A stretch of 41,654 bases of DNA from Chromatiaceae bacterium. Lineage in GTDB: Bacteria > Pseudomonadota > Gammaproteobacteria > Chromatiales > Chromatiaceae. Of this stretch, positions 2,942 to 41,654 are shown piece by piece. Position numbers and translations under genes: made by a program. Every line of letters begins with the position of its first letter. The first letter of the stretch is position 1. The notes beneath the pieces were generated by a model. That model ran no database searches. It was not told the DNA's origin and saw nothing but the letters and a program-made list of their open reading frames with translations. The stretch covers positions 1-41,654 of the forward strand of contig JANQGF010000190.1 of the NCBI GenBank assembly GCA_028277465.1, given 5' to 3'.

Positions 2942-2957
2942 GGAACTGGTCTCCTGA

Positions 2958-5839: not shown

Positions 5840-5855
5840 TCAGCGCTCCGTCAGC
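5840..5855 (+). promoter_or_regulatory. Direct repeat, candidate response-regulator operator
   Basis: TCAGC occurs at 5840-5844 and again at 5851-5855, an 11-bp period (TCAGC-N6-TCAGC), 23 bp before the PepSY start codon. OmpR/PhoB-family regulators commonly bind two half-sites one helical turn apart, and the operon just downstream encodes one, so autoregulation is plausible. Binding itself is inferred. Confidence 0.4.
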
Positions 5856-5877
5856 AAGGATCGGTCATGATGAAGAC

Positions 5878-11396: not shown

Positions 11397-11517
11397 CACC
11401 AGTCTCAGGTCGACTGACACCAGCGCGCGCCACAGTCTGAGCCGACCCCTCCAGGCGGGAAGGCTGGTGACCGCCTGCACCTTCATCCTCCTCACCGCCG
11501 AGCAGAGACCACACCCG

Positions 11518-12951
11518 ATGCAGCATCAGGCAAGACGCTTATTGTCCCTTTCATTGCCTTCGGTTCCGATTCTCCTTTTTCCGGACCCGGTCCTCGCCTC
11601 CCAAGGCCTGGCGCATCTGGATCTGACGAGCGCCTGGGTCGGGTATGCGGCCCTTATCATCTTCGTGGTGGCCTACGGGCTGGTGATGGCGGAGGAATTC
11701 ACCCAGCTGCGCAAGTCGAAGCCGGTCGTGCTGGCCGCGGGCTTGATCTGGATCCTGGTTGCCTACTATTACTCGACGCATCAGGGCGATTCGGAGCAGG
11801 TGGGCGAGGCGCTGCGGCACAACATCATGGAGTACGCCGAGCTCTTCCTCTTCCTCCTGGTGGCGATGACCTATATCAACACGATGGAGGAACGGGGCGT
11901 CTTCGAAGCGCTGCGTGCCTGGCTCGTGCGGAGCGGCTTCAGCTATCGGAAACTCTTCTGGACCACTGGATTTCTCGCCTTCTTCATCTCACCGGTCGCA
12001 GACAACCTGACCACGGCCTTATTGATGTGTGCCGTCGTGATGGCGGTCGGAGCCGACAATCCGCGTTTCGTGGCACTTGGCTGCATCAATATCGTCGTTG
12101 CCGCCAACGCCGGCGGCGCCTTCAGCCCTTTCGGGGACATCACGACACTCATGGTGTGGCAGAAGGGGGTCATCGCGTTTCAGACCTTCCTGCTGCTGTT
12201 CATCCCTTCACTGGTCAACTTTCTGGTCCCGGCCTATTTCATCCAGCGCGCGATACCGGACCTGGGGCCAGCGCCGAGCGACGAGCAGGTCCGCATGAAA
12301 CGCGGGGCGAAGCGGGTCGTGCTGCTGTTCCTGCTGACGATCGCGACCGCCGTCAGCGTTCACAGTTTTCTGCACCTTCCGCCCGTACTGGGAATGATGA
12401 CCGGCCTCGCCTATCTGAAGATCTTTGGGTTCTACCTAAGGCGCACCAGCGAGCTCTCGACGGTCCGCGCCGGCACGGTGGAGGACAGCATGCCCTTCGA
12501 CATCTTCAACAAGATCGCACGCGCTGAGTGGGACACACTGCTGTTCTTCTATGGCGTGGTCCTCTGTGTGGGCGGGCTCGGCTTCATCGGCTATCTGGAG
12601 CTGCTGTCGCATGCCGCCTACATCGACCTCGGCGCCACGGTCGCGAATACCCTGGTCGGTATCCTGTCGGCCATCGTCGACAACATCCCGGTCATGTTCG
12701 CGGTACTGACGATGAATCCGGACATGTCTCAGGGTCAGTGGCTGTTGGTGACACTCACCGCCGGCGTCGGCGGCAGCCTGCTCTCCATCGGGTCGGCGGC
12801 GGGGGTGGCCTTGATGGGTCAGACGAAGGGTATCTATACCTTCTTCGAGCACCTCCGCTGGACCCACGTCATCGCGCTGGGTTATTTCGCCAGCATCCTT
12901 GCGCACTTCATCGTCAACGGTTGGACCTTCTCGATCCCCGTCGGCAGCTGA
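11518..12951 (+). CDS. nhaD: NhaD-type Na+/H+ antiporter
   Basis: This polytopic protein (477 aa from this start) has about eleven membrane helices and the features of the NhaD family in the ion transporter superfamily: NIMEYAELFLFLLVAMTYIN, FFISPVADNLTTALLM, VVAANAGGAFSPFGDITTLM and, near the end, IVDNIPVMFAVL. The paired SP..DNLTTAL and SAIVDNIPVM stretches form the two substrate-binding re-entrant halves. It exports Na+ or Li+ in exchange for protons. I chose this ATG because it leads directly into a hydrophobic signal-like helix; a GTG 17 codons upstream is possible. It is a single gene, and a palindrome at 13020-13047 lies shortly after its stop. Confidence 0.92.
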   Translation: MQHQARRLLSLSLPSVPILLFPDPVLASQGLAHLDLTSAWVGYAALIIFVVAYGLVMAEEFTQLRKSKPVVLAAGLIWILVAYYYSTHQGDSEQVGEALRHNIMEYAELFLFLLVAMTYINTMEERGVFEALRAWLVRSGFSYRKLFWTTGFLAFFISPVADNLTTALLMCAVVMAVGADNPRFVALGCINIVVAANAGGAFSPFGDITTLMVWQKGVIAFQTFLLLFIPSLVNFLVPAYFIQRAIPDLGPAPSDEQVRMKRGAKRVVLLFLLTIATAVSVHSFLHLPPVLGMMTGLAYLKIFGFYLRRTSELSTVRAGTVEDSMPFDIFNKIARAEWDTLLFFYGVVLCVGGLGFIGYLELLSHAAYIDLGATVANTLVGILSAIVDNIPVMFAVLTMNPDMSQGQWLLVTLTAGVGGSLLSIGSAAGVALMGQTKGIYTFFEHLRWTHVIALGYFASILAHFIVNGWTFSIPVGS

Positions 12952-13019
12952 GATGGGCGGTATCATCCTAGAAGCGGCCTCCATCCAGGCAGTGAGGTCG
13001 CATGAAGCGAGCGGCGCTT

Positions 13020-13047
13020 GTTGGGCTTCGCTCTCGCTCAGCCCAAC
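13020..13047. repeat. GTTGGGC palindrome, second copy of the dispersed element
   Basis: GTTGGGCT (13020-13027) and AGCCCAAC (13040-13047) form an 8-bp hairpin with a TCGCTCTCGCTC loop, 68 bp after the nhaD stop. It matches the inner hairpin of the element at 1-87. It may attenuate transcription between the convergent nhaD and coiled-coil genes, but no T-run follows. Confidence 0.55.
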
Positions 13048-13091
13048 CTCAGCCGGTCGATCTCTTGGGTAAATTCTTTCCAGGAAATCGC

Positions 13092-13586
13092 CTAAGGCCA
13101 CAGCTTCAAAGCACCCACGACCAAGGCGCCGACGGACAGCGTCGTGGCAAAAGACCAGATCATGAAGCGATCGATCCGCCGCGTGAGCTCCTCGAAGCGT
13201 TTATCCATCGATTCGAAGCGTTTATCCATCGATTCGAAGCGCCTATCCATCGACTCGAATCGCTTATTGACGTCTTCGAAACGTCTGTCCATGGCCTCAA
13301 AACGCTTGTCGACAGCCTCGAAACGCTTGTCCACGGCCTCGAAACGCTTGTCAACAGCCTCGAAGCCTTTTTGCATCTCTTGCTGCATGGCGTCGAAGCG
13401 TCGATCCATCTGCTCCAGGATGGTCTTGATCAGCTCACGTTGGTGTTTGAGCTCTTCCTCGACACGTACCATCCGCTCGCGCAGCTCGATCTCATAGACG
13501 GCGGGCGGCTTGCCCAGGGATTGTTCGGCAAGCCAGTCGCCCAGGTGGTCTTTGATGAACTGAATGTCTTCGTTGGCCAGGGTCAT
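13092..13586 (-). CDS. Heptad-repeat coiled-coil protein with C-terminal membrane anchor
   Basis: The 164-residue protein starts with a helical N-terminus (MTLANEDIQFIKDHLGDWLA). It then has a long coiled coil (about 35-135) made of near-identical seven-residue repeats of the type KRFEAVD / RRFESMD, and a single C-terminal membrane helix (FATTLSVGALVVGALKLW). It probably forms a parallel helical bundle anchored to the membrane; the function is unknown. The frame is open 11 codons upstream only from a TTG, so I took the first ATG. The protein repeats are mirrored in a 21-bp DNA tandem repeat, so copy number can change by slippage without breaking the frame. Confidence 0.75.
   Translation of the reverse strand: MTLANEDIQFIKDHLGDWLAEQSLGKPPAVYEIELRERMVRVEEELKHQRELIKTILEQMDRRFDAMQQEMQKGFEAVDKRFEAVDKRFEAVDKRFEAMDRRFEDVNKRFESMDRRFESMDKRFESMDKRFEELTRRIDRFMIWSFATTLSVGALVVGALKLWP
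13192..13380 (-). repeat. 21-bp tandem repeat inside the coiled-coil gene
   Basis: Units beginning TCGAAGCG or TCGAAACG start exactly every 21 bp at 13192, 13213, 13234, 13255, 13276, 13297, 13318, 13339 and 13360. Each unit encodes one heptad. The first three units are almost identical in DNA, indicating recent duplication. This is a coding minisatellite, not a CRISPR array, since there are no spacers. Confidence 0.9.
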
Positions 13587-13784
13587 GATCAAATGGATGA
13601 CAACAAGCTGAGGAATCAAGTATAGCCCCGCAGGCCCAGACCCAGACCGCGAATCCGAAGCGCTATCGCCGCGCGCCTTACCGCTGATGGAATCGCGCCG
13701 GCGCCATGCCTCGATTGCGGTCCGCGGTGCAAATCGACACCGCTCGGGCAGCAGGATCCCGGTCAGCCGCAGGCCCGCCGCTGC

Positions 13785-15005
13785 TCAATCCAGCATCTCG
13801 AGATCGCGATCGCGCATCCCGAGCAGATAGAGGATGCCGTCGAGTCCGACCGTGGCGATGGAGTGACGGGCCTGTTGGGTGACGATGGGCTTGGCATGAA
13901 AGGCGATGCCGAGACCGGCGATCGAGAGCATCGGCAGGTCGTTGGCTCCGTCGCCCACGGCAATGACCTGCTCCAAGCGGATCCCTTCGAGTGCGGCGAT
14001 CTCACGTAGCAGCGCGGCCTTGCGGGCACCGTCGATGATCTCGCCGCTGACCTCACCGGTCAATCGGCCATCGCGAAGCCCCAGCCGATTGGCGTAGACA
14101 TAGTCGATACCGAAGCGCCGCTGCAAGTGCTCGGCGAAGTAAGTGAAGCCACCGGACAGAATGGCGATCTTGTAACCCAACCGCTTGAGGCTGGCGATCA
14201 GGCGGTCGGCCCCTTCGGTGATGGGGAGGGTCTGGGCGATCTCGGCCAGCACCGACTCTTCCAACCCTTCGAGCAATGCCATGCGGCGGCGAAAACTCGC
14301 CTGGAAATCCAGTTCGCCGCGCATGGCCGCCTCGGTGATCGCGGCCACCTCGGGGCCGACGCCGGCCGCCACCGCGAGCTCGTCGATCACCTCGGTCTGG
14401 ATCAGGGTCGAATCCATGTCGAAACAGACGAGACGCCGGTTGCGACGGAAGACATCATCCTCCTGGACCGCGATGTCGACCCCGATCACCTGTCCCAGCG
14501 CCAGGAGCGCGGCGTGCAGGGCGCAGAGATCCTCGACCGTGCCGCGTACCGAGAGCTCGACGGAGGCCAGGGGATGCGGACCCGGATCGCGGCGCGAGAT
14601 ACGCCCGGTCAAGCGCACGATGCGGTCCACATTGAGGCCTTGCTCGGCCACCACGGCGGTGACGCGTGCGATCTGCTCGGCCTCGATCTCGCGGCCCAGC
14701 AGGGTCAAGATATGCCGCGGCCGCCCCTGCTCCAACACCCAGCCTTCATAGTCATCCGCATCGATGGGGGTGAAGCGGATGTCGAGCCCCATGCCATGCG
14801 CACGGAACAAGAGCTCCTTGAACACGGGGCAGTCGGGACCCTCGCTGGACAGCTCGACCAAGAGGCCCAGTGTCAGGGCGTTATGAATGGTCGACTGGCC
14901 GATATCCAAGATGGGGACCTGATAACGGGCGAGGACCTGGGTCAGCGCCGCCGCAATGCCGGGCCGATCTCCGCCTGTCACATTGATGAGAAGGATCTCG
15001 CCCAT
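13785..15005 (-). CDS. serB: Phosphoserine phosphatase with tandem ACT domains
   Basis: SerB dephosphorylates phosphoserine, the last step of serine synthesis. The 406-residue protein has two N-terminal ACT regulatory domains (about 1-85 and 95-180; the first begins LLINVTGGDRPGIAAALTQV) and a C-terminal HAD phosphatase domain. HAD motif I is CFDMDSTLIQTEVIDELA, motif II is AILSGGFTYF and motif IV is VIAVGDGANDLPML. The double-ACT form, longer than the E. coli enzyme, is known in pseudomonads and mycobacteria, where ACT domains can bind serine for feedback control. It appears to be a single transcription unit, with 56 bp between it and the lipid gene upstream. Confidence 0.95.
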   Translation of the reverse strand: MGEILLINVTGGDRPGIAAALTQVLARYQVPILDIGQSTIHNALTLGLLVELSSEGPDCPVFKELLFRAHGMGLDIRFTPIDADDYEGWVLEQGRPRHILTLLGREIEAEQIARVTAVVAEQGLNVDRIVRLTGRISRRDPGPHPLASVELSVRGTVEDLCALHAALLALGQVIGVDIAVQEDDVFRRNRRLVCFDMDSTLIQTEVIDELAVAAGVGPEVAAITEAAMRGELDFQASFRRRMALLEGLEESVLAEIAQTLPITEGADRLIASLKRLGYKIAILSGGFTYFAEHLQRRFGIDYVYANRLGLRDGRLTGEVSGEIIDGARKAALLREIAALEGIRLEQVIAVGDGANDLPMLSIAGLGIAFHAKPIVTQQARHSIATVGLDGILYLLGMRDRDLEMLD

Positions 15006-15061
15006 GTCAGCTCCGATCGCTTGGATCCCGACCAGACCCGATCCGTGGCCAACCGGCGGAC

Positions 15062-16288
15062 TCAGGCCTCACCCGGAACCTCGAGCAGCGTCTGGACCAG
15101 ATCGATACTACCCGCCCGGAAGCCCGCCTCGCAGTAGGCGAGATAATACTCCCACATGCGACGGAAGGTCTCGCCATAGCCGAGTGCACCGATCTCCTTG
15201 GCCGCGGCCCGGAAGCGTGTCCGCCAGCGCTCGAGTGTCTCGGCATAATCACGACCATGCCAGCGCGTCTCCAGGGTCCGCAAACCGCAATCCCGTGCCA
15301 GCCCCTCCATGCTTGCGGGCGACGGGAGCATACCACCCGGGAAGATATAGAGTTGAACGAAATCGGGGCGGCCTCGATAGATCGGGAAGATGTCATCACC
15401 GATGGTGATGACCTGAAGCGCGACCCGGCCTCCTGGTCGCACCAGCCGCCGCAGCGCCCCATAGTAAGCCGGCCAGTAGGTCTCGCCGACTGCCTCCATC
15501 ATCTCGATCGAGACGGCGTGATCGAACTGTCCCTGGATATCCCGATAGTCCTGGAGCCTGAGTTCGACTTGATCCGACAAGCCCGCGGCAGCTATCCGCC
15601 GACGCCCGTACTCGAGCTGTTCGCGCGACAGGGTCACCCCGGTGACCCTGAGACCGCGGCTCGCCGCCACCTCTGCCAAACCGCCCCAGCCGCAGCCGAT
15701 CTCCAGGAGATGCTCCCCGGGTCTGGCACCCAGACCGTCGAGCAGCCGCTCGTACTTGCGGCGCTGAGCCATCTCCAGCGAGTCCGCGTCGCCATCTTCG
15801 AACAGGGCGGAGGAATAGGTCATGCTGTCATCGAGCCAGCACCGATAGAAGTCGTTGCCCAGATCATAGTGACGAGCGATGTTGCGCCGGCTGTTGAGAC
15901 GATGGTTATGGCGCAGCAAATGGACCAGCCGATCCCAAAGCCGTGACCAACGCATCCCTTGAAAGCCGCGTTCGAGGTGTTCCTCATTGTCGAGCAACAC
16001 CTCCAAGAGCGCGGCGAGATCCGGCGTGTCCCAATGACCCTCGACATAGGACTCCCCGAAACCGACCTCGCCGCGCGTCAGGAGGCGCAATGCCAGCATG
16101 AAGGATCGCCTGATCTCGAGGACTCCTGAATCACCCTCGAAACGCCCGCGATAATGCGCCCGGCTTCCGTCCGGGAAATGCACGCTGAGTTGCCCGAAGG
16201 CGAGGTTGCGGCAGAAACCACCGATCAGCCGAGCGGGCCAGCTTGGCCCGCTCGGCGCATCACCATCCAATAATTCCTCCGCGGACAT
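15062..16288 (-). CDS. Cyclopropane-fatty-acyl-phospholipid synthase family methyltransferase
   Basis: The 408-residue enzyme uses AdoMet to methylate or cyclopropanate unsaturated acyl chains of membrane phospholipids. Visible features are NIARHYDLGNDFYRCWLDD before the core, the AdoMet motif LEIGCGWGGLAEVAA, VSIEMMEAVGETYW and the C-terminal YCEAGFRAGSIDLVQ. I used the ATG whose A overlaps the last base of the DUF1365 stop (TAATG); the frame is open a further 109 codons but that overlaps DUF1365 and shows no homology. It is the last gene of the FAD oxidase - DUF1365 - CFA trio, a cluster known from sigmaE/ChrR regulons of proteobacteria. Related methyltransferases act in furan fatty acid synthesis, so the product need not be a cyclopropane. 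Confidence 0.88.
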   Translation of the reverse strand: MSAEELLDGDAPSGPSWPARLIGGFCRNLAFGQLSVHFPDGSRAHYRGRFEGDSGVLEIRRSFMLALRLLTRGEVGFGESYVEGHWDTPDLAALLEVLLDNEEHLERGFQGMRWSRLWDRLVHLLRHNHRLNSRRNIARHYDLGNDFYRCWLDDSMTYSSALFEDGDADSLEMAQRRKYERLLDGLGARPGEHLLEIGCGWGGLAEVAASRGLRVTGVTLSREQLEYGRRRIAAAGLSDQVELRLQDYRDIQGQFDHAVSIEMMEAVGETYWPAYYGALRRLVRPGGRVALQVITIGDDIFPIYRGRPDFVQLYIFPGGMLPSPASMEGLARDCGLRTLETRWHGRDYAETLERWRTRFRAAAKEIGALGYGETFRRMWEYYLAYCEAGFRAGSIDLVQTLLEVPGEA

Positions 16289-17055
16289 TAGGAAATCTCC
16301 TCTGTCGGTGGCGCCGGTTTGGGGTGATAGCGCCCGCCCCGAAGCCAGATCTTCAATGCCTGCCAATGAATCATCACGACGACCTTGAGGGTCAGCAAAG
16401 GATAGCCGACCGCCGCTCTCAAGAGGTTCCGGTCGGAGAGCTCGCGGATCGATCCACGCTGGACGGCGACCAGCATCAACCGATCCCCCTGGTACTCGCG
16501 GATGACGGTGCTGTGGTTGCCTTGCTGACGACCGAAACGGAAATGGTAAGCGGCGTTCATGTCGATGAAGGGCGAGACATGAAACTCCTTCGCATGGGTC
16601 TCGCGGATCGGCCAAGACATCCCGGCGCCCTTGTGATGCAAGAGATAGCTATGGCTCTCGCCGAAGGTGTTGCTGACCTCGCACAGGACGGCGACCGGAT
16701 CCCCCGCCGGACCATAGCAGGTCCAAATACTGAGTGGATTGAAGACGAAACCCAGCACCCTGGGAAAGCACTGCAGCTCGATCCGCTCGATCTCGAAGCG
16801 GTGCCCGAGCCGCTGGAGACGCTCGCACAGCCAGCCTTTCAATGGGGCACCAGTCCGGGGGCCGTGATCGGCATCATAGAATGACAACAGATTGAAACGA
16901 TTGTACGAGAACCAGCGACAGCGAGCCGCGATCTCGCCGACTCGATCCACATCGATCAACAGACTGAAGACCCGATAGACGAACCGGTAGCGGACCGGAT
17001 ACAGACGGCGATGCATGACATCGCCGAAGATGAGCTGCCCGGCGGACTGGCTCAC
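16288..17055 (-). CDS. DUF1365 protein of the CFA-type lipid cluster
   Basis: This 255-residue protein matches the DUF1365 family by YPVRYRFVYRVFSLLIDVD, FNLLSFYDADHGPR, LGFVFNPLSIWTCYG, EVSNTFGESHSYLL and KEFHVSPFIDMNAAYHFRF. The biochemical role is not established. The family is nearly always found between an FAD amine-oxidase-like gene and a CFA-type methyltransferase, as here, so it probably acts on the same modified fatty acid. It overlaps the oxidase gene by 4 bp (ATGA) and the CFA gene by one base, so all three are translationally coupled. Confidence 0.9.
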   Translation of the reverse strand: MSQSAGQLIFGDVMHRRLYPVRYRFVYRVFSLLIDVDRVGEIAARCRWFSYNRFNLLSFYDADHGPRTGAPLKGWLCERLQRLGHRFEIERIELQCFPRVLGFVFNPLSIWTCYGPAGDPVAVLCEVSNTFGESHSYLLHHKGAGMSWPIRETHAKEFHVSPFIDMNAAYHFRFGRQQGNHSTVIREYQGDRLMLVAVQRGSIRELSDRNLLRAAVGYPLLTLKVVVMIHWQALKIWLRGGRYHPKPAPPTEEIS

Positions 17056-18401
17056 GAGACCGCTGTCCGAGCAATCGCAGCTGGCTCGGCTACCGGCTCG
17101 GGTGGAGGAACGGCGCGGATGCCCACCGCGCGCGGCCAGGGCGGCTCGACGCCGAGTCCCGAGGCCACCTCGAGCGCCGCCCTTAGCCCGTCCTCATGGA
17201 AGCCATAGCCCATCCAGGCACCACTGAACCAGAGTCGGTCACGCCCCTGGATCTCCGACATCCGCCGCTGAGCCGTCATCGCACGCGTGTCGAGCACCGG
17301 GTGATCATAGTCGAACTCCGCGATCACGCTCTCCGCGCGCGGCGGCTGCTGCGGATTCAGGCTGACGAAGAGATCCCGCTCCGGCGTTAGGTCCTGGAGG
17401 CTGTTCATCCAATAGGTGACGGTGACGGGGCCGGTGGGATCCGCGCCCGACTGGCGTAGATAGTTCCAAGACGACCAGACCCGTCGACGTCGCGGCATCA
17501 GCTGCAAGTCCGAATGCAGGAAAACGTGGTTCTTGCGGTAGTAGAAGCTGCCCAGCAACTCGCGTTCCAGACCGGAGGGCGACTCGATCAATGAGAGCGC
17601 CTGGTCGGCATGACAACCCAGGACGACCGCATCGAAGACCGACCGCTCGCCCTCGGCCGTCTCCACCTCGACCCCTTGCCCGATGCGTCGAACCCGCTTG
17701 ACCTGGACCCTCGTGCGGTATCGACCCCGGAACTGAGCCAGCATGCGCTCGACATAGGTCCGGCTACCATCACGTACGGTCTCCCATTCCGGACGACCGA
17801 CCAGATCCAAGAGGCCGTGGTTGGCGAAGAAACGTGCGAAGGAGAGAAAGGGGAAGGCCAACATGTCCTGGGGCGGACAAGACCAGATGGCGGCAGCCAT
17901 GGGCAAGAGATAATGGCTCGCGAAGCGCCCGGAATAGCCCCCTCGCGCCAAGAAATCGCCCAGGGTCAAGGTCATGCCCGGGTTGGAGGTGATATGCCTC
18001 TTGGCCGCCCGATTGAAGCGCAAGATCTCGGCGAGCATACGCAGAAACCGCCAGTCCAGAAGATGGCGCCGCTGGCCGAAGAGGGTATTCAGATTCGATC
18101 CCGCATATTCGAAGCGACCGCCATCCAAGCTCGCCGCAAAGGACATGCTGGTGGGATAGGACTCGACCCCGAGATGTGCGAACAGCGCGCACAGAAGTGG
18201 ATAATTGCGTCGGTTGAACACCATGAAGCCGGTGTCCACCGGGCAGGGTCCGCCCGGTCCATCCACTAGCACCGTGTTCGTATGTCCGCCGATGTAGTCA
18301 TTCTGTTCCAGCAGCGTGACCTGATAGCGTTGGTCCAACAGCCAAGCCGCGCCGAGCCCGCCGATCCCGCCACCGATCACGCCGATTCTCTCTACCGACA
18401 T
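17052..18401 (-). CDS. FAD-dependent amine oxidase-like protein of the lipid cluster
   Basis: The 449-residue flavoprotein opens with a dinucleotide-binding motif (RIGVIGGGIGGLGAAWLL, then the acidic LLEQNDYIGGH). It carries the NAD(P)-binding amine-oxidase signature VDTGFMVFNRRNYPLL and the C-terminal FAD motif LWFSGAWMGYGFHEDGLRAA. It may desaturate or oxidise an acyl chain for the CFA-type methyltransferase in the same operon; the exact reaction is unknown. I chose the internal ATG because AAGGGG stands immediately upstream and the Rossmann motif begins four residues in; the frame continues 15 codons further upstream. It is the first gene of the trio. Confidence 0.88.
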   Translation of the reverse strand: MSVERIGVIGGGIGGLGAAWLLDQRYQVTLLEQNDYIGGHTNTVLVDGPGGPCPVDTGFMVFNRRNYPLLCALFAHLGVESYPTSMSFAASLDGGRFEYAGSNLNTLFGQRRHLLDWRFLRMLAEILRFNRAAKRHITSNPGMTLTLGDFLARGGYSGRFASHYLLPMAAAIWSCPPQDMLAFPFLSFARFFANHGLLDLVGRPEWETVRDGSRTYVERMLAQFRGRYRTRVQVKRVRRIGQGVEVETAEGERSVFDAVVLGCHADQALSLIESPSGLERELLGSFYYRKNHVFLHSDLQLMPRRRRVWSSWNYLRQSGADPTGPVTVTYWMNSLQDLTPERDLFVSLNPQQPPRAESVIAEFDYDHPVLDTRAMTAQRRMSEIQGRDRLWFSGAWMGYGFHEDGLRAALEVASGLGVEPPWPRAVGIRAVPPPEPVAEPAAIARTAVS

Positions 18402-18724
18402 CCCCTTGATCCTCGCGTTCGACCCAGCAAACACCCGCCGCCCCATCCGCGGGTGCTGTGGTCATCTTGTATCCAAGTTCCAAATCAGACTGCATCCGGC
18501 CCGATCCACGTCACGTCGCGCATGGGCTCCAAGGCGATTGCCGGAGAACCGTCAGCGTCGCTCTTGACGCGGTTCAAAATGGAGTACAGCAAGGGGCCGT
18601 CGACAGTTGGACCACTGAACCGACCCGGCGGACCCGGCCGATCATCTTTCGAACGGACGTCCAATCCGCCATCGGCGACGCCCCCCTGGGCCTGGCTAAC
18701 GCGGCCCAGTCGCCGCCAGCAGGG
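18402..18724. other. 323-bp intergenic stretch with an unassigned short frame
   Basis: Between the pmbA stop and the oxidase start I see no recognisable gene. On the minus strand the frame of pmbA reopens after its stop and continues to a stop at 18485-18487. From a TTG at 18662-18664 this would give 59 residues (LDVRSKDDRPGPPG... ending MRDVTWIGPDAV) with ordinary GC-rich codons. It could be a small gene, a decayed gene end or chance. An ACCCGC...GCGGGT inverted repeat lies near 18433-18455, in the likely promoter region of the lipid operon. Confidence 0.3.
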
Positions 18725-20074
18725 TCACTCCCCGGCGATGGTCATGCGCTCGATGAGCCAGGACCCCGTGCGGGTGCTGCCCGGGAAGTCACAGTCATTT
18801 CCCACCGCAGCCAAGCCAGCGAACATCTCCTTGAGATTCCCCGCGATGGTGATCTCCTCCACCGGGTACTGGATCTCACCCTTCTCGACCCAGAAACCGG
18901 CCGCACCACGGGAGTAATCGCCCGTGACCAGATTGACCCCGTGACCCATGAGCTCGGTCACCATCAAGCCGGTCCCCAGCTCGCGCAGCATCGCGGCGCG
19001 GTCCTGCTCACCCATCTCGACGCGCAGATTGCGCACACCGCCGGCGTTGCCGGTGGTCGACATACCGAGCCGGCAGCCCGAGTAGGTATCGAGCAAGTAA
19101 GTCTGGAGCACGCCCTCTGCGACCAGATCCTTGGCGCTGGTCGCAACGCCATCGCCATCGAAGGGCGCACTCGCCAGACCACGTGGTAGCAGCGGCTCCT
19201 CATGGATGCGCACGAAGGCGGGGAAGATAGGCTCGCCCAGATGATCGAGCAGGAAGCTGGAACGGCGATAGAGACTGCCGCCTAGGATGGCCGACACCAG
19301 GCTGCGCACCAGACCGGTCGCCACCTCCGCCCGGAAGAGAACGGGCGCCTCGCAGGTACCCAGACGCCGCGCCCCGAGACGCGAGACGGTCCGCTCGGCC
19401 GCCCGCTCGCCCACCCGCGCCGCCGGATCCAGATCCGCCGCGCAGCGAGCGCTGGTCCACCAGTAGTCACGCTGCATGGCATCGCCGTCCTGGGCGATCA
19501 GGGCGCAGTTCAGACTGTGCCGGGTCGTCGGATAGCCGCCGATGAAGCCATGGGTATTGCCTGCGACCTGGATCCCGGAATGGGTTGAGAGGCTGGCGCC
19601 CTCTGAATTGACGATGCGACCGTCATAGGCGCGACCCGCCTCTTCACAGTCGACCGCCAGCGCGATCGCCTCCTCGACCCCGATCGCCCAGGGGTGATAG
19701 AGATCCAGGTCGGGAATTCGCTCGACCATGAGCCCGGCAGCGGCGAGATGGGCACAGGGGTCTTCCTGGGTGTGCTCGGCGATGGCGCAGGCCGCCCCGA
19801 CGGCGTCGCGCACGGCCCCCAGGCTCAGATCCGTGGTGCTGGCCGACCCCTTGCGGTGACCGAAATAGACGGTCACGGTAAGCCCGTTGTCACGGGTATG
19901 CTCCACGGTCTCCACCTCACCGAGACGCACCGAGACATCGAGACCCGCGCTACTCCCGACCGAGGCCTCGGCGTCGCTCGCGCCCCGACGCCTGGCCTCC
20001 TTCAGCAGATCCTCGATGATCTCTTGCAAGTGCGCCAGACGCTCGGCGGTGTCCTCGGTGGTCAGGATAGGCAT
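18725..20074 (-). CDS. pmbA: PmbA/TldE metalloprotease subunit
   Basis: The 449-residue protein is TldE/PmbA, partner of TldD in a heteromeric zinc protease that trims unfolded peptides and matures microcins and other RiPPs. Family features are VSVRLGEVETVEHTRDNGLT, VYFGHRKGSASTTDLS, the central LLPRGLASAPFDGDGVAT and YLLDTYSGCRLGMSTTGNAGG, and the ending GVNLVTGDYSRGAAGFWVEKGE. As expected for TldE it lacks the HExxxH zinc motif found in TldD. The tldD gene lies 102 bp upstream on the same strand, with the two probably co-transcribed. Upstream spacing gives no strong Shine-Dalgarno. Confidence 0.95.
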   Translation of the reverse strand: MPILTTEDTAERLAHLQEIIEDLLKEARRRGASDAEASVGSSAGLDVSVRLGEVETVEHTRDNGLTVTVYFGHRKGSASTTDLSLGAVRDAVGAACAIAEHTQEDPCAHLAAAGLMVERIPDLDLYHPWAIGVEEAIALAVDCEEAGRAYDGRIVNSEGASLSTHSGIQVAGNTHGFIGGYPTTRHSLNCALIAQDGDAMQRDYWWTSARCAADLDPAARVGERAAERTVSRLGARRLGTCEAPVLFRAEVATGLVRSLVSAILGGSLYRRSSFLLDHLGEPIFPAFVRIHEEPLLPRGLASAPFDGDGVATSAKDLVAEGVLQTYLLDTYSGCRLGMSTTGNAGGVRNLRVEMGEQDRAAMLRELGTGLMVTELMGHGVNLVTGDYSRGAAGFWVEKGEIQYPVEEITIAGNLKEMFAGLAAVGNDCDFPGSTRTGSWLIERMTIAGE

Positions 20075-32555: not shown

Positions 32556-34277
32556 ATGACCATCCGTCAAACGAGCACGAAGCTGCCACACCACTACCAG
32601 CGCCGTATCCTGCTGATGGTGACGGGGCGGACACCTAAAGTGGTCACCGAGACGCTCTACGCAATCGCCGTCAGCCCACGGCCCGATGCAGAGCCCTTCG
32701 TGCCCACCGAGATCCATCTCGTCACCACCGCCGAGGGGGCTCAAGACGCACGACTCGCCTTGCTCGATCCGAACGGCGGCTGGTTCCATCGGCTGTGCGC
32801 CGACTACCGCCTCGACGGCATCACCTTCGGGATGGAGCAGATCCATGTCATCACCGCCGATGAAGGTACGCCGGTCGACGACATCCGCACCGAGTCCGAG
32901 CACGTCGCTTGCGCGGACCTGATTACCGAGCTGGTCCGCACCTTCACGGCGGTACCAGACACCGCACTACACGTCTCTCTGGCCGGCGGACGCAAGACCA
33001 TGACCTATTATCTTGGCAACGCGCTGACCCTGTTCGGTCGCCCGCAGGATCGCCTGTCGCATGTGCTGGTGCCGCCGCCCTTCGAGTCGAATCGCGAGTT
33101 CTTCTATCCCACCCCGGACAGTCGTCCGCTCTATGTCAACGCGCTAGAGCGCTATTTCGACGCCCACGACGCCGAGGTCACGCTCGCCGAGATCCCCTTC
33201 GTGCGCCTACGAGAGAATCTGCCGCCTCACTTCAAGGGGCTTGCGACCGGTATCTATGACTCCTTCCGCCACTATCGGATGGACGACGAGCAGGCCCTAA
33301 GGCGCCACCTGTCGGCCGAGGTGCATTCGTTGGCGCGCATGGGTCTTGGCACCAGCGACAGCGTCATCCTCTATAGCTCAGAGACTGCTGATGGTCATGC
33401 TTGCGCCCAGGCTGTCGCCACCTATCTGCGCGCACAGCGACCCGGCCTCGTTTGCAACATTGAGGTCATTCAGGGTCTGCAGGTCAACGACGCAGCGCGC
33501 TTCCGCAGCGAAGGCGTGATCAACTTCACCAAGGCCGTGCTGAGGGCAATTGAGGCCAATGGTCCGCGCCAATGTGTTCTCAATCCCACTGGCGGATTCA
33601 AGAGCCTGGTTCCCTATACCGTCCTGATCGGCATGATCAAGGGCGTGACGGCCAAATACATCTTCGAGCAATCGAGCGCTCTGATTCCACTGCCGGCCGT
33701 GCCGATCGAGCTCCCCCGCGAGCGTCTCGAGCCGTTGCGCCCGCTGATCGAGCGGATCCAGCTCGAAACCGCCGTGTCCCGCTCAGCGCTCGAGGATGCC
33801 CTGCCCTATCACGAGCGGCAGGCATTGGAGCCGCTGTTCGAAGAGGTCGGCGACGGTCAGGTGACCCTTTCACCTTTTGGCTTCCTGGTGCGAGAGGCGC
33901 TTGAGCGTCCGAGCGCGCTTGTGCCCTATCTGTCCCGACGGGCCATTGAGGATTTGGTCCGGATGCGGCGAATCCAGGACACCAAACCCGAGAGCTACCT
34001 CCGTCGAGTGGCCGCGAGCGAGCAGCAGCTCCAGGTCGGTAGCCACATTAAATGGCCTGGCGATCTGTACTGGCTCAAGCCCGGCGAGCACACTCGTGAT
34101 CGCTACCTGGTCTCCCGGGAGGGCTGGCGGCTGCTGGTCTGGCGCATCGCCGAGAAGCCGGAGTACGAGGAACTGCTGCAACGCCAGCAGACGGGCGATG
34201 TCGCCAAGCGGATCCTGGAGGATCGCCGCGACAGGTACGAGCCCTTCGTGCGCTTCGACCTCTACGAGCGTGCCTGA
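32556..34277 (+). CDS. Type III CRISPR effector: NE0113 ring-nuclease-like + CARF + RelE-like C-terminus
   Basis: The 573-residue protein has three parts. Residues about 15-255 match the NE0113/Csm6-type ring nuclease family, with RRILLMVTGRTPKVVTETLY at the start and VSLAGGRKTMTYYLGNALTL in the ligand site. Residues about 265-395 are an APE2256-type CARF domain, with VILYSSETADGHACAQA and the cyclic-oligoadenylate-site motif LNPTGGFKSLVPY. The C-terminus (about 500-573), with PGDLYWLKPGEHTRDRYLV, WRLLVWRIAEK and PEYEELL, has the beta-strand pattern of a RelE-type mRNA interferase, as in CARF-RelE (Cami1) effectors. That last assignment is inference. It would be a cA-activated toxin with a built-in ring-nuclease-like module that may degrade the signal. 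It leads the cas operon. Confidence 0.75.
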   Translation: MTIRQTSTKLPHHYQRRILLMVTGRTPKVVTETLYAIAVSPRPDAEPFVPTEIHLVTTAEGAQDARLALLDPNGGWFHRLCADYRLDGITFGMEQIHVITADEGTPVDDIRTESEHVACADLITELVRTFTAVPDTALHVSLAGGRKTMTYYLGNALTLFGRPQDRLSHVLVPPPFESNREFFYPTPDSRPLYVNALERYFDAHDAEVTLAEIPFVRLRENLPPHFKGLATGIYDSFRHYRMDDEQALRRHLSAEVHSLARMGLGTSDSVILYSSETADGHACAQAVATYLRAQRPGLVCNIEVIQGLQVNDAARFRSEGVINFTKAVLRAIEANGPRQCVLNPTGGFKSLVPYTVLIGMIKGVTAKYIFEQSSALIPLPAVPIELPRERLEPLRPLIERIQLETAVSRSALEDALPYHERQALEPLFEEVGDGQVTLSPFGFLVREALERPSALVPYLSRRAIEDLVRMRRIQDTKPESYLRRVAASEQQLQVGSHIKWPGDLYWLKPGEHTRDRYLVSREGWRLLVWRIAEKPEYEELLQRQQTGDVAKRILEDRRDRYEPFVRFDLYERA

Positions 34278-34314: not shown

Positions 34315-36007
34315 GTGGCAGCCGAGGACAACGAGAACTCAGGGTTCCTGGTCTTTCTCGAGACATCGGGCAACCAGGCCTACCTGTTCGCGACGAACAA
34401 GCTCAAGGAGAACGTCGGCGCCTCCCAGCTCACCTACCTGGCGGGCGCCGAATGGGCCAAGCAGGCGGCGGAGCAGTGCGGAGCCAAATGCATCATCAAG
34501 ACCTCCGGCAAGGCGTTGCTCGTGGCGCCGACCCGTGAGGTGGGGATGGAGATCGTCGCGCAGGTGACCCGAACCGCCTTGCGCGAGGCGCCGGGCCTTC
34601 AGGTCTCGGGTGCCGTCGTGGACCTCTCGTGTGGCCAATCCTCGGCGCTCGCGCTCGCCCACGAGCAATTCGCCCGCAATCACGAGGCGATGGGGGCGCA
34701 GCGATTTCCCGTCTTGCCCTGGAGTGAGCCCTGCGCGACCTTGGGCCGGCCGGCCGCGGGCCGGGCCAAGGAGGGGGGTGACGAGCAGCCCTGCTTCTCG
34801 GCCGAGGCGCTCGCCAAGCGTGCCGCGGCCCCGGCGTGGTCGACGCGGATCAGGGAGTTGTTCAAGGAAAAGGGCGGGAAGGCGGGCGCGGACAGGCTTT
34901 TCCCCGAGACCGATATCGACACGCTGCAGCGCCGTTTCGAGGGCAGCCAGTGGCTCGGCGTCGTCTTCTCCGACGGCAACGGGCTCGGTCAGATCTTCAT
35001 CGACCTGGAGCGTCATCTGAAGACGCTGCGCGAGCGCGGCGAATCGATGGGCGATCTGCGGAAGACGACGAGCGACTTCTCCAAGGAGCTCGAGTGCGCC
35101 ACCGAGGAGGCCTTCTACGCCGCCTGCGATCACATCCACCGCATCGGTGCCTCGGTCGAACGGCGACGCCACGGGCGCGCGGCGGGCAACGACTATCGGA
35201 TCCCGGTGATCCCGCTGGTCCTCGGGGGCGACGATATGACCGTGTTGGTGCAGGGCGAGTATGCCCTGCCATTCGCCCGCCGCTTCCTGGAGGCCTTCGA
35301 GCGCGCGACGGCGGACGCCGGCCGCTGCCCGACGCTCACCCGGGTAGCCGAGGTGGCGCTTGGCGCCCCCTGGCTGTCGGCCTGCGCCGGGGTGGCCCTG
35401 GTGAAGCACCATTTCCCCTTCCATCTCGCCCACGCCTTGGCGGAGTCGCTATTGCGCTCGGCCAAGCTGGTCAAGCAGAAGGTGCGACCGGCGGGCGGTC
35501 AGCAGGCGCCATTCCCCGTGTCGGCGCTCGACTTCCACCTGATGCTCGATCCATCCCACACGGATCTGGGCACCATCCGCGCCGAGCGCCTGACTCTACG
35601 CCGGCCCCTATGTCGTCACGCCGCTCGGGAAGCTCGACGCGGCCGAGCCCGCCGGCCGACGCTGGACCGATGAGCACGCGCTCGAACGGCTTCTGGGGTG
35701 CGTCGCCGCCCTGAAGGCAGCCGATCCCGAGACGGATCGGCTCAAGCTTCCGCGCGGCCAGATGCACGGGCTCCGCCAGGCCGCTGCGCTGGGCAAGTCG
35801 CACGCCGACGAGCGGCTCGAGGCGCTGCGTTGGTTGGATGACGAGGGGCTTCGGATCCTGACCGATGGGAGGACATCCCTGTTCATGGAGCGCGACGGGG
35901 AGAGCGTCACCCGTTTCGTCGACGCCCTGGCCACGGTCGGCTTTTGGCCCTGCCTCGATGAGCAAGGGAAGAACGAGGGTCAATGGACCGCGGAGGATCG
36001 GCCATGA
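34315..36007 (+). pseudogene. cas10: Cas10 of type III-Dv, frameshifted near the C-terminus
   Basis: Cas10 is the large subunit that makes cyclic oligoadenylates when the complex binds target RNA. The protein begins FLVFLETSGNQAYLFATNKL a few residues in, has a palm-like VVFSDGNGLGQIF and carries the intact cyclase motif LGGDDMTVLV. There is no N-terminal HD nuclease domain. The reading frame fails around 35593-35600: frame one runs to a stop at 35671-35673, whereas homology-like sequence (YAGPYVVTPLGKLDAAEP and on) continues in the +1 frame to the stop at 36005-36007. Two bases (a CT) appear to be missing in ACTCTACG. Start GTG at 34315 is preceded by AGAGGAGA; a GTG at 34270 is possible. 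The final ATGA overlaps the next gene. Confidence 0.85.
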
Positions 36008-38355
36008 CCGAGCGACTGCGTCTTCACGTCACCTTCGAGTCCGACTGGCACGTTGGCGAAGGGGCCGGCAGCCGAGGGTACATCGATGCGATCGTGCGTC
36101 GGCATCCCGAGGGCGGACTTCCCTATCTGCCTGCCAAGACGCTCACCGGCATCCTGCGCGACGGCTGCGAGCGCATCGTCTACGGGCTGGACAGCGCCAG
36201 GAGCGACGGACCCTGGCATGCGCTGCTGCGAGCCATCTTCGGCGCCGATTCCGAGGATCCGGATCCACGCGCGCGGGATGCCGCCCTGTCGGTGATGCCG
36301 GCGCGATTCGATGCCGATCTGCGCCGCGCCTTGTGCGAGAGGCCCGAGATCGCCGAGGCGCTGGTCTTTCTCAAGCCGGGGATCCAGCTCGACGAGGAGG
36401 GCGTCGCGAAGACCGACATGCTGCGCTTCGAGGAGGTCGTGCTCGCCGGCGCGCAACTGTCGGCCGATCTCGAGCTGGCGCTCGACGGCGAGCGTCGCCG
36501 GTCAGCGCTCGCGCTGATCGCCGCGGGGGCCAAGGTGGTCGAGCGGCTCGGTGCCGGCCGCCGCCGCGGCAGCGGTCGCTGTCGTCTGACCCTGGCCGGG
36601 GGGCCGGAGCAGACGCAGCTGCCCGCGCTCCTGCGCGCCGCGCCACCTGAGTCGGGTCCCGAGGGCACCTCCGAGCCCTCCTTGATCCTGTCCGCCCCCG
36701 AGTCCAACGATTCGGGGGATTGGAACCGACTCGCCATCGAGCTAGATCTCGAGACGCCGGTCCTGGTGCCGGCCGAGACGCTTGGCAACGTCGTCACGAC
36801 GCGCGATCACATCCCCGGCTCGCTGCTCCTGCCCGCGCTCGATCGTTGGCTGCGAGCGCTGTTGGGCGGACGCACCACCTCCGCGCTCGCAGCGGGTGCG
36901 ATCCAGGTACGCAATGCCTATCCGGCCATCGATCGGCAGCGCCTGCTCCCGGTCCCCGCGGCCTTGTTCAAGCTCAAGGACGGGGACGTCTACACCAACC
37001 ACCTGCCGAACGATCCCGAGGGGAAGGCGCAGCGCAAACAGCAGCGCCTGGGCTATGTCGGTGCCGCAGGGCTTCCATGGCTCGGCGCTGACGGTTCCGC
37101 GACGCCCGGCGTGCTCACCGTGGATACCCTCACGGTCACACACGCGGCCATCGAGGACGGGCCTCAGCGTCCCACCTCCAGAGTTGGCGGCGTCTTCACC
37201 TACCAGGCGCTCCATCCCCGACAGAGGCACTTCGAGTGCTTCATCGCCGAGCTCTGGATCTCGACCTCGCTCGTGCCTGAGCTGCCGAACGGCTGGGTCG
37301 AGGCCTGTCCCGCGCATATCCGCATCGGACGCGCGAAGAAGGACGACTACGGGCGCGTCCGCGTGTCTTGTCGCGTCGAGACAGCGCCGAGTGGCACGCG
37401 GGCCGCGCACCGACTGACGCTTTGGCTCACCTCACCCCTGCTGCTGCGCGATTCCGCGCTACGTCCGGTCTTGAGCGTTCAAGGCGTACTGGATGGCCTG
37501 ACGCAGGCGCTCAACGCGGGCGTGACCCAGTCGGACCACATCCGATTGAGCGTGCCGGCCCCGGAATCCGCCCGCAATCCCAGCTTCGTCCGACCCTGGC
37601 GCGACGATGGCTGGATCAACGCCTGGCAGATGCAGCGTCCGACCCGTTTCGGCCTCGCCGCCGGGTCCTGTGTGCTGATCGAGGCCGATCGGGAGATCCC
37701 GGCGGGGCGTCTGGCCCGTGTCCAGGCGCGCGGGCTGGGCGAGCGGCGCGCCGAGGGGTATGGCGAGATCCTGATCGACGCGGAGATCCTGGGCGAACCG
37801 ACGGTGCCCGCGCTCGGGGCGAAAGCCCGAGGCACGCCGGCCAAGAAGGCGAGTGTCCCGGGTCTCGTACCGCTGGAACCGTCGGGCTTCACCCGCGCCT
37901 TGCAGCGGCGCGCCGCGCGTCTCGCGGTCGAGCGTCGCGTCCTGCAGCGGGATCGGGCGCTCCGTCGCAAGATCGGGTGGGAGAGCGGCGATCGGCCGCA
38001 ACCGCCGAATACCCAACTCGGTGCACTGCGCGCGCTGATGGAGACGCTCCGCGATCCGTCCGGACTCCAGCGCGTGGCGGGTTGGATCGACGCCATCGAG
38101 GGCAACGACGACCGCAGGGCGAAATGGCCGCAGCGGACCCTGCAGAAGCTGCGCACGCACATCGCCGATGTCGAGGCGATCTGGTGCGATCTCGGTCTGC
38201 CGGACGGCCCACAGGCCCTGGCCGGCCACGATCGCGAGGCATTGGCGCGGGAGCTGCGCTGCGAGGCGATCCGCGCGCTCTGGCTCGTGGCCGTGTCGCG
38301 TCAGCTGAACGAGAACAACCGTCGCGTGTGCAAGGACTCGGCGCGGGAGACCTGA
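36004..38355 (+). CDS. cas7-cas5-cas11: Cas7-Cas5-Cas11 fusion subunit of the type III-Dv complex
   Basis: This 783-residue backbone protein joins three subunits. Residues about 1-220 are a Csm3-like Cas7 RAMP domain: HVGEGAGSRGYIDAIV, with Asp28 placed like the catalytic Asp of Csm3, then GLPYLPAKTLTGILRDG and the Gly-rich loop LGAGRRRGSGRCRLTL. Residues about 235-600 are Csx10/Cas5-like, with TTRDHIPGSLLLPALDRWL and the hallmark IGRAKKDDYGRVRVSC. Residues about 630-783 are helical and match a Cas11-like small subunit (RALQRRAARLAVERRVLQRD). Such a fusion is characteristic of the Synechocystis III-Dv complex. Its start overlaps the cas10 stop (ATGA) and 4 bp separate it from the next gene. 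Confidence 0.87.
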   Translation: MTERLRLHVTFESDWHVGEGAGSRGYIDAIVRRHPEGGLPYLPAKTLTGILRDGCERIVYGLDSARSDGPWHALLRAIFGADSEDPDPRARDAALSVMPARFDADLRRALCERPEIAEALVFLKPGIQLDEEGVAKTDMLRFEEVVLAGAQLSADLELALDGERRRSALALIAAGAKVVERLGAGRRRGSGRCRLTLAGGPEQTQLPALLRAAPPESGPEGTSEPSLILSAPESNDSGDWNRLAIELDLETPVLVPAETLGNVVTTRDHIPGSLLLPALDRWLRALLGGRTTSALAAGAIQVRNAYPAIDRQRLLPVPAALFKLKDGDVYTNHLPNDPEGKAQRKQQRLGYVGAAGLPWLGADGSATPGVLTVDTLTVTHAAIEDGPQRPTSRVGGVFTYQALHPRQRHFECFIAELWISTSLVPELPNGWVEACPAHIRIGRAKKDDYGRVRVSCRVETAPSGTRAAHRLTLWLTSPLLLRDSALRPVLSVQGVLDGLTQALNAGVTQSDHIRLSVPAPESARNPSFVRPWRDDGWINAWQMQRPTRFGLAAGSCVLIEADREIPAGRLARVQARGLGERRAEGYGEILIDAEILGEPTVPALGAKARGTPAKKASVPGLVPLEPSGFTRALQRRAARLAVERRVLQRDRALRRKIGWESGDRPQPPNTQLGALRALMETLRDPSGLQRVAGWIDAIEGNDDRRAKWPQRTLQKLRTHIADVEAIWCDLGLPDGPQALAGHDREALARELRCEAIRALWLVAVSRQLNENNRRVCKDSARET

Positions 38356-39856: not shown

Positions 39857-40443
39857 GCACGCAGAGACTGACCCTCTACCGCTGGCGGCGAGACCGCATC
39901 GGCTTGGCCGCCTGTCTCCGCGACTGCTTCTCGGGTCAGCGGCTGATGGGCTGGTGCCAGACCCCGCGGCATCTCTTCTTGCTCGGCTGGGACGGTGCCG
40001 CCGTTCTGGATTGGACGGGGAAGGCGCTGGAGGGACCCGACCCGCTCGGTCAGGTCTACGAGGCCCGCTTCTTCCACTCCGGCGGCGATCCCGACGGCGA
40101 GCTGCGCTGGCTGAGGGATCCCGAGACGGACGGGTTCGGTCGAGCCGCCTGGGTCAGCGAGACCGACCGCTGGGCGCCGCGCGGCTTCGAGACGGCGGAT
40201 GTGCTGTCCGATCTCGAGCCGCTGGACGCATTGGCGACGCCGGGCGGCACCATCCCCAACCGCATCCTGATCCAGGCCCGCGCCGAGCTGCCCGGGATCC
40301 CGCCGGGCGAGCCGGCGGTCTATCGCATTCGCGAATACATGGGGCCGGCACCCGAGCCCGCCGGCGATCACGGCAACTGGATCGTCGTCGAGCAGCGCAT
40401 CCTGGGAATCCGACCGCTGAATGGAGGGGGCGCGAATGAGTGA
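39853..40443 (+). CDS. csx19: Csx19 (TIGR03984-type) accessory subunit
   Basis: The 196-residue protein matches the Csx19 type of small CRISPR proteins by position and content: LTLYRWRRDRIGLAACLRDC at the N-terminus, ARFFHSGGDPDGELRWLRD in the middle and VYRIREYMGPAPEPAGDHG near the end. Csx19 is found in III-D systems and is a subunit of the III-Dv effector complex; it has no known catalytic activity. Its start overlaps the Cas7-2x stop (ATGA), and its last eight bases overlap the next RAMP gene. I recognise the family mainly through the operon context. Confidence 0.7.
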   Translation: MSTQRLTLYRWRRDRIGLAACLRDCFSGQRLMGWCQTPRHLFLLGWDGAAVLDWTGKALEGPDPLGQVYEARFFHSGGDPDGELRWLRDPETDGFGRAAWVSETDRWAPRGFETADVLSDLEPLDALATPGGTIPNRILIQARAELPGIPPGEPAVYRIREYMGPAPEPAGDHGNWIVVEQRILGIRPLNGGGANE

Positions 40444-41314
40444 GCAGACGCTGAAGGCAACCATCCAGGTCCGTACCGTCAAGAGCGGTCCGCAGGCCTT
40501 CATCGAGGTGCCGACCAGGAAGGGCTCGCGGGAAGCCGCGCTCGCCAAACAGCTGCTCAGCAAGTCGTTGGCGGCCCTATTTGCGGTGGCACCAGAAAAC
40601 CTGAAGGGGCGCGAGGTGGAATACCGCCTGCGCGCCGGACAGCTCGACAGGGTGTGGGAGGCGGGCGCTACCTGGGACGGTGGCGACCCGGCACCTCGGC
40701 CGCCCGGGCATGGCGGCAGATCGGGCGGCCACCCTGACTTGAGGGGCCACACCGGCGGCGCTCGACCGCCATCGCTCCATACCGACCAGTGGTTCGAGAA
40801 TCCCTACAACTTCGTCCCGGCATCGCCACGCGACACCAACCACCCGACCCTCGGCGATGCCGAGCCCGCCGGCCACCATCGCTACCACCCCGAGCTGTGG
40901 AGCGGACGCATCGGCGTCGAGCTCACCACCTGCACCCCGCTGCTCGTCCCCGATCTCGGCCGCGACAGCGTAGACGGGCACAGGGTCTACGGTCTGCGCC
41001 TGGACGAGGACGGCGTCCCCTACCTGCCCCCCACCAGCATCAAGGGGGCCCTGCGCTCGGCCTACGAGGCGATGACCAATAGTCGGATGGGGATCTTCCA
41101 AGGTCTCTCCGAGCCACTCGCCATGCGCCATGTGGCCCAAAGCGGCGCCGATGTAGTTCCGGTCCGTGTCTCGGACGACGGTACCTCGTTGGAACTGCTC
41201 ACTGGGACGAGTTCGTTGACCAGTAACGGGCCGCCATCGGCCGGTCAGCCTCAGTGCGCGGCATGGGTGCCCTACTATTCCACGCAAAGACTCCTACGAC
41301 GAGGTAGAAGCCTG
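40436..41314 (+). CDS. Cas7-insertion RAMP protein (TIGR03986-type), interrupted
   Basis: The protein starts at an ATG overlapping the csx19 stop by 8 bases. After an N-terminal beta domain (about 1-75) comes a Gly/Pro-rich linker (about 80-115). A RAMP domain follows with NPYNFVPASPRDTNHPTL, VELTTCTPLLVPDLGRDS and YLPPTSIKGALRSAYEAMTN, matching the TIGR03986 family. The frame is good to about 41270. It then continues to a stop at 41500 only with unusual codons (AGA, CTA, AGA), while the +1 frame reads PRKDSYDEVEAW with normal codons. A frameshift near 41265-41280 is likely. I end the exon at 41314, just before a candidate group II intron. The full family is much longer, so the rest lies outside the window. 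Confidence 0.7.
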
Positions 41315-41654
41315 GTGCGACATGGCAATCGCGTATGGGCAAGGATACAGGAGTGGCAGCACTATCGGCGCAAACGAAATCGTCAACTGAACCGCGACGA
41401 GTGGAGGCCCGATTTCCGGTTTTGGCGAAGTCTGGAACTCGCACCGGACGGGCCTTCCGCGCCGCAGAATTCACCAGACCCGAGACGCCCCCGCCACTGA
41501 GCCACAACGGGTTGGCTGCGCGCCATCGGTGCGTAAGCCAGAGATCTGTGAACGTACGGCCCGCTTCCATGCATGGCTGTGCAGCACTTGGACGTTGGCG
41601 GGGCACCGACGATTTTCTGGGGCTCGAACGAGCCACGGGCCGGGTGCCTTCTCC
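41315..41654 (+). mobile_element. Candidate group II intron, 5' end, inside the Cas7-insertion gene
   Basis: From 41315 the sequence starts GTGCGAC, a group II intron 5' consensus (GTGYG), and becomes structured and non-coding. Stops break every forward frame by 41500, and hairpins appear, such as GGCTC-GAAC-GAGCC (41621-41634) inside GGCACC...GGTGCC (41602-41607 with 41643-41648). The six bases before it, AGCCTG (41309-41314), can pair with CGGGTT (41508-41513), with two G-U pairs, as IBS1-EBS1, 193 bases downstream. Domain V, the reverse transcriptase and the 3' boundary would be outside the window. This is an inference from pattern, not a covariance search. Confidence 0.5.

What the first reader, a model, noticed from the sequence alone, without database searches (positions are those of the whole stretch)
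35593..35600. Frameshift in cas10 after an intact GGDD motif
The frame with the palm domains and GGDD ends at 35673, while the natural-looking continuation (AGPYVVTPLGK and on to 36007) is in the +1 frame. A missing CT in ACTCTACG explains it. The cyclase core would survive but about 135 C-terminal residues, expected to contact the Cas11 and backbone subunits, would be lost.
Basis: seen in the sequence. Interest (0 to 1): 0.7.

Follow-up and report, generated by a model that had tools for sequence, protein, structure and literature searches.

The report
Broken Cas10 in decaying CRISPR locus
In this purple-sulphur-bacterium-type genome, the signalling gene (cas10) of a rare type III-Dv CRISPR defence system is cut in two by a reading-frame shift and a second gene of the same complex is cut by a mobile-element end, so the system is most likely dead or dying; this is an ordinary way for bacteria to lose CRISPR systems.

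Summary
The frameshift is real in the assembly. The lost 137 residues are the helical, small-subunit-like C-terminal domain of Cas10.

The operon is type III-Dv. Cas10, Cas7-Cas5-Cas11, Cas7-2x and Cas7-insertion each match a different chain of the Synechocystis III-Dv complex (PDB 8s9t). Published work says this Cas10 C-terminus lines the Cas7 filament and supplies two residues of RNA-cleavage site 3; both are conserved in the shifted frame here.

Two other type III loci in the genome have long open Cas10 frames.

Best reading: recent loss of function by an indel and, separately, a mobile element (order unknown).

One oddity remains: a distant relative has an amber codon at the same Cas10 junction in an otherwise intact operon.

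The parts
32556..34277 (+). CARF effector gene: Cas_NE0113 (CARF5, ring-nuclease type) fused to CARF7-RelE-like protein, 573 aa, intact
   Evidence: NCBIfam TIGR02584 E 2.4e-65; Pfam PF09623 and PF09651; PADLOC CARF7--CARF_RelE_like E 1.3e-144 over residues 230-571
34315..35673 (+). cas10, upstream frame (GTG start, 452 codons): palm domains, GGDD at 35224-35235; ends in about 25 out-of-frame codons and TGA
   Evidence: PADLOC Cas10 E 1.2e-88; Pfam Cas10-Cmr2_palm2
35591..35600 (+). frame switch: head homology ends at 35595, tail homology begins at 35594; lies in the variable palm2/C-terminal-domain linker
   Evidence: tblastn of orthologues; linker comparison
35594..36007 (+). cas10, downstream frame (+1): helical small-subunit-like C-terminal domain, 137 codons; contains QMHGLR with the equivalents of site-3 residues H and R at 35765-35776; its stop overlaps the next gene's start (ATGA)
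   Evidence: 50% identity to L014; E 2.9e-10 to 8s9t_C residues 450-573; H504/R507 named as Cas10 residues of cleavage site 3
36004..38355 (+). cas7-cas5-cas11 fusion, intact
   Evidence: E 8.2e-103 to 8s9t_A Cas7-Cas5-Cas11; 53% identity to L014 over 763 residues
38360..39856 (+). cas7-2x, intact
   Evidence: E 7e-82 to 8s9t_D Cas7-2x; 59% identity to L014
39843..40443 (+). csx19, intact
   Evidence: 43% identity to the L014 gene, which matches 8s9t_B (TIGR03984) weakly, E 0.0012; the window protein itself has no library or PDB hit
40436..41479 (+). cas7-insertion, truncated: about 347 of about 840 codons remain, in frame up to the element junction
   Evidence: E 1.1e-53 to 8s9t_E; alignment with L014, L015, G069; missing part absent from the assembly
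41480..41654 (+). end of a repeated (mobile-element-like) sequence; 174 of 175 bases identical to the end of contig C192; assembly break

Best explanation
The window holds the remains of a type III-Dv CRISPR effector operon that has lost function. An indel (net +1 shift, most simply a deletion of 3k+2 bases) in the variable linker between the second palm domain and the C-terminal domain of cas10 ends the protein about 25 residues later. SHOWN: the frame switch, the conserved tail in the other frame, the intact GGDD, the subtype, and the clean cut of cas7-insertion by a repeat-element end. INFERRED: the truncated Cas10 cannot dock along the Cas7-Cas5-Cas11 backbone and cannot complete RNA-cleavage site 3; translation coupling to the next gene (ATGA overlap) is lost, so the downstream subunits are probably under-produced; with cas7-insertion also cut, the complex cannot assemble normally. 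The lesions are probably recent, because the tail still looks like a coding domain under constraint. Their fixation is plausible because the genome carries at least two other type III loci.
For: Two-frame tblastn with intact orthologues. Four distinct intact relatives: L014, L015, Synechocystis pSYSA and Nostoc pNe_2. III-Dv identity of four subunits by PDB chains 8s9t A, C, D and E. Cas10 C-terminus along the Cas7 filament and site-3 residues in it (PMC11026444). Second lesion: cas7-insertion is in frame up to 41479 and then enters a repeat shared with C192's end, and its C-terminal half is absent from the 99.94%-complete assembly. Tail/head identity ratios for the window (0.87, 0.85) lie among those of intact pairs (0.93, 0.84), so there is no sign of long relaxation. 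Second type III-D locus on C26 (RT, cas1, 24-repeat array, unbroken cas10) and a Csm-like locus on C117. Precedent: escape mutants of the S. epidermidis type III-A system carried cas10 frameshifts and nonsense codons, IS256 insertions in csm5/csm6/cas6, and large IS-bounded deletions (PMC3784566). The site is not a homopolymer, which makes a simple sequencing error less likely.
Against: No reads or second assembly of the same strain could be examined, so an assembly error is not excluded. The tail is still perfectly open over 137 codons, which would also fit an error or occasional suppression of the shift. The missing part of cas7-insertion could lie in an unassembled gap beyond the repeat. 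No expression data.
Confidence: 0.78

Rival explanations
1. Sequencing or assembly error: the gene is intact in the organism and bases are missing in a draft of 418 contigs.
For: Draft assembly with many contigs; the tail frame is undamaged over 137 codons; no reads available.
Against: The switch is not in a homopolymer or long repeat (GCGCCTGACTCTACGCC). A two-base error would imply a true linker of about 5 residues against 10-23 in relatives. The same operon carries an independent structural lesion at 41480. The other cas genes of the operon up to 40443 are unbroken.
Confidence: 0.14
2. Tolerated split: Cas10 works as a palm core without, or separate from, its C-terminal domain, and interruption at this junction is recurrent. 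In G069 an in-frame TAG sits immediately before RLFAGPYVV in an otherwise intact III-Dv operon.
For: G069:C10 cas10 has one TAG exactly at the junction, while cas7-cas5-cas11, cas7-2x, csx19 and cas7-insertion are open. The other Cas10-type matches in the surveys show no internal stop. In type I-D a separately made Cas11d small subunit goes with the Cas10d gene (from general knowledge; related papers listed).
Against: The two interruptions differ in kind (frameshift, amber). Neither has a start codon near the tail's first residue: the first ATG/GTG/TTG here is 35762, 56 codons into the domain, without a clear ribosome-binding site. Four of six distinct III-Dv Cas10s are unbroken; leaving out the window, which was chosen for its break, it is 1 of 5 broken. 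In Synechocystis the domain is part of one Cas10 chain.
Confidence: 0.06
3. Programmed +1 frameshifting, for example slippage on CCC-C at 35605-35608, makes two Cas10 forms.
For: CCC followed by C occurs in the zero frame 4 codons after the switch and would lead into ...RRP-YVVTPLGK.
Against: Slip-prone codons of that kind occur in 35% of 26-codon stretches of this gene. No orthologue has a shift there. No stop codon or other stimulator adjoins the site.
Confidence: 0.02

Closest known systems
Synechocystis sp. PCC 6803 type III-Dv effector (pSYSA; PDB 8s9t/8s9u/8s9v/8s9x; PMC11026444)
   Same: Same gene order and fusions: cas10, cas7-cas5-cas11, cas7-2x, csx19, cas7-insertion; four of the five products match its chains; GGDD Cas10 with a helical C-terminus
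   Different: Here cas10 is split by a frameshift and cas7-insertion is truncated; no cas6, cas1 or array seen on this contig; upstream effector is a CARF5/CARF7-RelE fusion rather than separate Csm6 and Csx1
III-Dv loci of Chromatiaceae MAGs (L014 JACDZG010000026.1; L015 NZ_CAJXYK010000085.1)
   Same: Closest intact orthologues found (51-55% in the Cas10 head), same operon
   Different: cas10 is one frame with a 23- or 11-residue linker; cas7-insertion full length (844 and 835 aa)
Loss-of-function lesions of type III systems, e.g. S. epidermidis escape mutants (PMC3784566) and element-truncated Cas10 in Mycobacterium sp. SM1 (PMC10333696)
   Same: cas10 frameshift/nonsense and mobile-element lesions in cas genes
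   Different: The S. epidermidis system is III-A; here both kinds of lesion lie in one III-Dv operon

Membership tests
Type III-Dv CRISPR effector | Cas10 of the III-Dv type without HD domain | tested here: met
   Orthologue L014 matches 8s9t_C at E 3.8e-86; window tail matches 8s9t_C 450-573 at E 2.9e-10; the protein begins at the ETSGNQ region as in Synechocystis
Type III-Dv CRISPR effector | Cas7-Cas5-Cas11 fusion | tested here: met
   8s9t_A E 8.2e-103 over residues 5-759
Type III-Dv CRISPR effector | Cas7-2x fusion | tested here: met
   8s9t_D E 7e-82
Type III-Dv CRISPR effector | Csx19 | tested here: inconclusive
   Position and 43% identity to the L014 gene; L014 product matches 8s9t_B only at E 0.0012; window product has no hit of its own
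Type III-Dv CRISPR effector | Complete Cas7-insertion subunit | tested here: not met
   N-terminal part matches 8s9t_E at E 1.1e-53; the gene is cut at 41480 and the rest is absent from the assembly. Filed as a degraded locus derived from III-Dv, not as a working member
Type III-Dv CRISPR effector | Single-chain Cas10 with C-terminal domain | tested here: not met
   Frame switch at 35594/35595
Type III-Dv CRISPR effector | Cyclic oligoadenylate synthesis and target RNA cleavage at three sites | not testable with these tools
   Needs protein; GGDD is present
Programmed +1 frameshift gene | Conserved shift site in relatives | tested here: not met
   Four distinct relatives are read in one frame; the fifth, G069, has a stop and no shift

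The most novel reading that the evidence does not exclude
Interruption at the palm2/C-terminal-domain junction of III-Dv Cas10 is selected or regulated rather than accidental: the cell makes a palm-only Cas10 plus a little full-length protein by recoding (frameshift here, amber readthrough in G069), so cOA signalling is uncoupled from docking on the backbone.
Probability: 0.05. Interest if true: 0.7.

Novelty: new member of a known kind. Interest (0 to 1): 0.3.

Why it matters
It shows a rare CRISPR subtype caught while decaying, with the lesion mapped onto a solved complex: the lost part is the helical domain that lines the Cas7 filament and helps RNA-cleavage site 3, while the cyclase motif is left. 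If truncated Cas10 were made, it would be a natural test of whether cOA synthesis needs that domain. The coincidence with the amber codon in G069 at the same junction is the only point that could lift it above an ordinary pseudogene.

Tried and rejected
Restart of translation for the tail: no ATG/GTG/TTG before 35762 in that frame; the overlapping ATG at 35670 is in the third frame; no clear ribosome-binding site at 35762. Internal small-subunit start at the QM codon: the methionine is not conserved (S in Synechocystis, L in G069). Slippage on CCC-C: common by chance. TAG reassignment in G069: the other genes of its operon end in TGA or TAA, so the locus gives no evidence either way. AlphaFold model of L014 Cas10 from 3 sequences: mean pLDDT 41.5, too poor to search with, so not used. 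Wider survey for breaks at the junction: viral contigs and phages gave none; plasmids gave Synechocystis and Nostoc; repeated class searches returned the same sample; Cyanobacteria could not be used as a centre. RNA families: no match in the window.

Full report
OBSERVATION. The zero frame of cas10 (GTG 34315, preceded by GAGAGGAGAAC) carries the palm domains and GGDD (35224-35235) and ends at TGA 35671-35673. The +1 frame opens after TGA 35591-35593 and runs LYAGPYVVTPLGK... to TGA 36005-36007. Tblastn with the intact orthologue L014 gives 34348-35610 in one frame (425 bits; the last residues are chance) and 35594-35998 in the other (130 bits). With L015 the head ends at 35595 and the tail begins at 35594.

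WHAT THE LOCUS IS. NCBIfam and Pfam alone place the genes only loosely in type III. PADLOC gives Cas10d, Cas5_IIId and Cas7_IIId. The best assignment comes from solved structures. The L014 Cas10, and the window's Cas7-Cas5-Cas11, Cas7-2x and truncated Cas7-insertion, match chains C, A, D and E of PDB 8s9t (E 3.8e-86, 8.2e-103, 7e-82, 1.1e-53). The window's Cas10 tail alone matches chain C residues 450-573. Csx19 is assigned by position and by its L014 homologue. [quoted passage not shown] Upstream lies an intact fused CARF5 / CARF7-RelE-like effector gene.

WHAT IS LOST. PMC11026444 states that the C-terminus of Cas10 runs along the Cas7 filament with the Cas11 domain and resembles canonical small subunits. 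It also states that two Cas10 residues (H487 and R490; 504 and 507 in the numbering used for the simulations) belong to RNA-cleavage site 3, where their mutation partly reduces cleavage. Counting in the alignment puts chain residues 504 and 507 in the motif SHALR. The window has QMHGLR at the same place in the shifted frame, so both residues are conserved but untranslated unless the shift is suppressed. The cyclase motif stays in the translated part. Whether the truncated protein is stable or active is not known.

NATURE OF THE LESION. Between ...IR and LY/LF the relatives have 10 (Synechocystis), 11 (L015), 13 (Nostoc), about 17 (G069) and 23 (L014) residues; the window has about 5. A deletion of more bases in the same frame class is at least as likely, but the exact event cannot be read from one sequence. 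The site is not a homopolymer. The tail is still coding-like in composition and its identity to relatives is in the usual proportion to the head's, so the event is recent, an error, or suppressed.

SECOND LESION. The cas7-insertion gene aligns in frame with L014, L015 and G069 up to about 41478, then enters sequence of which 174 of 175 bases are identical to the end of contig C192. Both contigs stop at the same base, the usual sign of a repeat that the assembler could not cross (inference). A search with the full L015 protein found no other part of this gene in G000. The remaining residues, roughly 490 of 840, are therefore missing from the assembly.

CONTEXT. G000 has further type III loci. 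C26 carries a III-D set with reverse transcriptase, cas1, a 24-repeat array and an open cas10. C117 carries an HD-type Cas10 with Csm-like genes (the subtype is my reading of the gene order, not a library result). Loss of the III-Dv operon may therefore cost little. The lesion types match those of S. epidermidis type III-A escape mutants: cas10 frameshifts and nonsense codons, IS256 insertions, IS-bounded deletions (PMC3784566).

AN UNEXPLAINED COINCIDENCE. In G069 the whole III-Dv operon is open except for one TAG placed directly before RLFAGPYVV, the same junction. If breaks fell evenly over about 580 codons, a second break in a 17-codon linker would be expected about 3% of the time; this estimate was made after seeing the data. 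Only six distinct III-Dv Cas10s could be found, four of them unbroken. The two breaks differ in kind, neither has a nearby restart codon, and the window was chosen because it is broken. I treat this as a lead, not as evidence for recoding.

VERDICT. A real frameshift in a decaying III-Dv operon, most likely a pseudogene. Assembly error is the main rival. Programmed shifting is unlikely.

Noticed in passing
L023 (G069:C10:42001-58000), TAG at position 6930 of its reverse complement: In-frame amber codon at the same palm2/C-terminal-domain junction of a III-Dv cas10 whose operon is otherwise open.
   Followed up: partly
window 32556-34277: One 573-aa protein joins a Cas_NE0113 (CARF5) domain to a complete CARF7-RelE-like effector; the other loci tested (L009, L075, L014) match only the NE0113 part.
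   Followed up: partly
L014 7041-7679: The NE0113-type CARF gene upstream of the intact L014 cas10 loses its homology after GGRKT within the frame, which looks like a frameshift (in a metagenome assembly).
   Followed up: partly
L022 (G000:C26) 83-1732 and 2010-18918: Second type III-D locus in the same genome: 24 repeats (GTTTCATCGCCTCTAATTCGGCTCAGTTCGTCGGAC), reverse transcriptase, cas1, cas10, several RAMP genes, with a transposase-like gene (14960-16483) lying inside one TIGR03986-type gene.
   Followed up: partly
L075 (G000:C117) 813-13246: Third type III locus with HD-type 906-aa Cas10, Csm-like RAMP genes and CARF genes.
   Followed up: no
window 41480-41654 and L021 8311-8485: Repeat end (CCGAGACGCCCCCGCCACTGAG...) at two contig ends; the element itself was not identified.
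   Followed up: partly
window 13171-13380: Nine 21-base tandem units in a gene on the minus strand (13092-13619), coding heptad-like KRFEAVD repeats.
   Followed up: no
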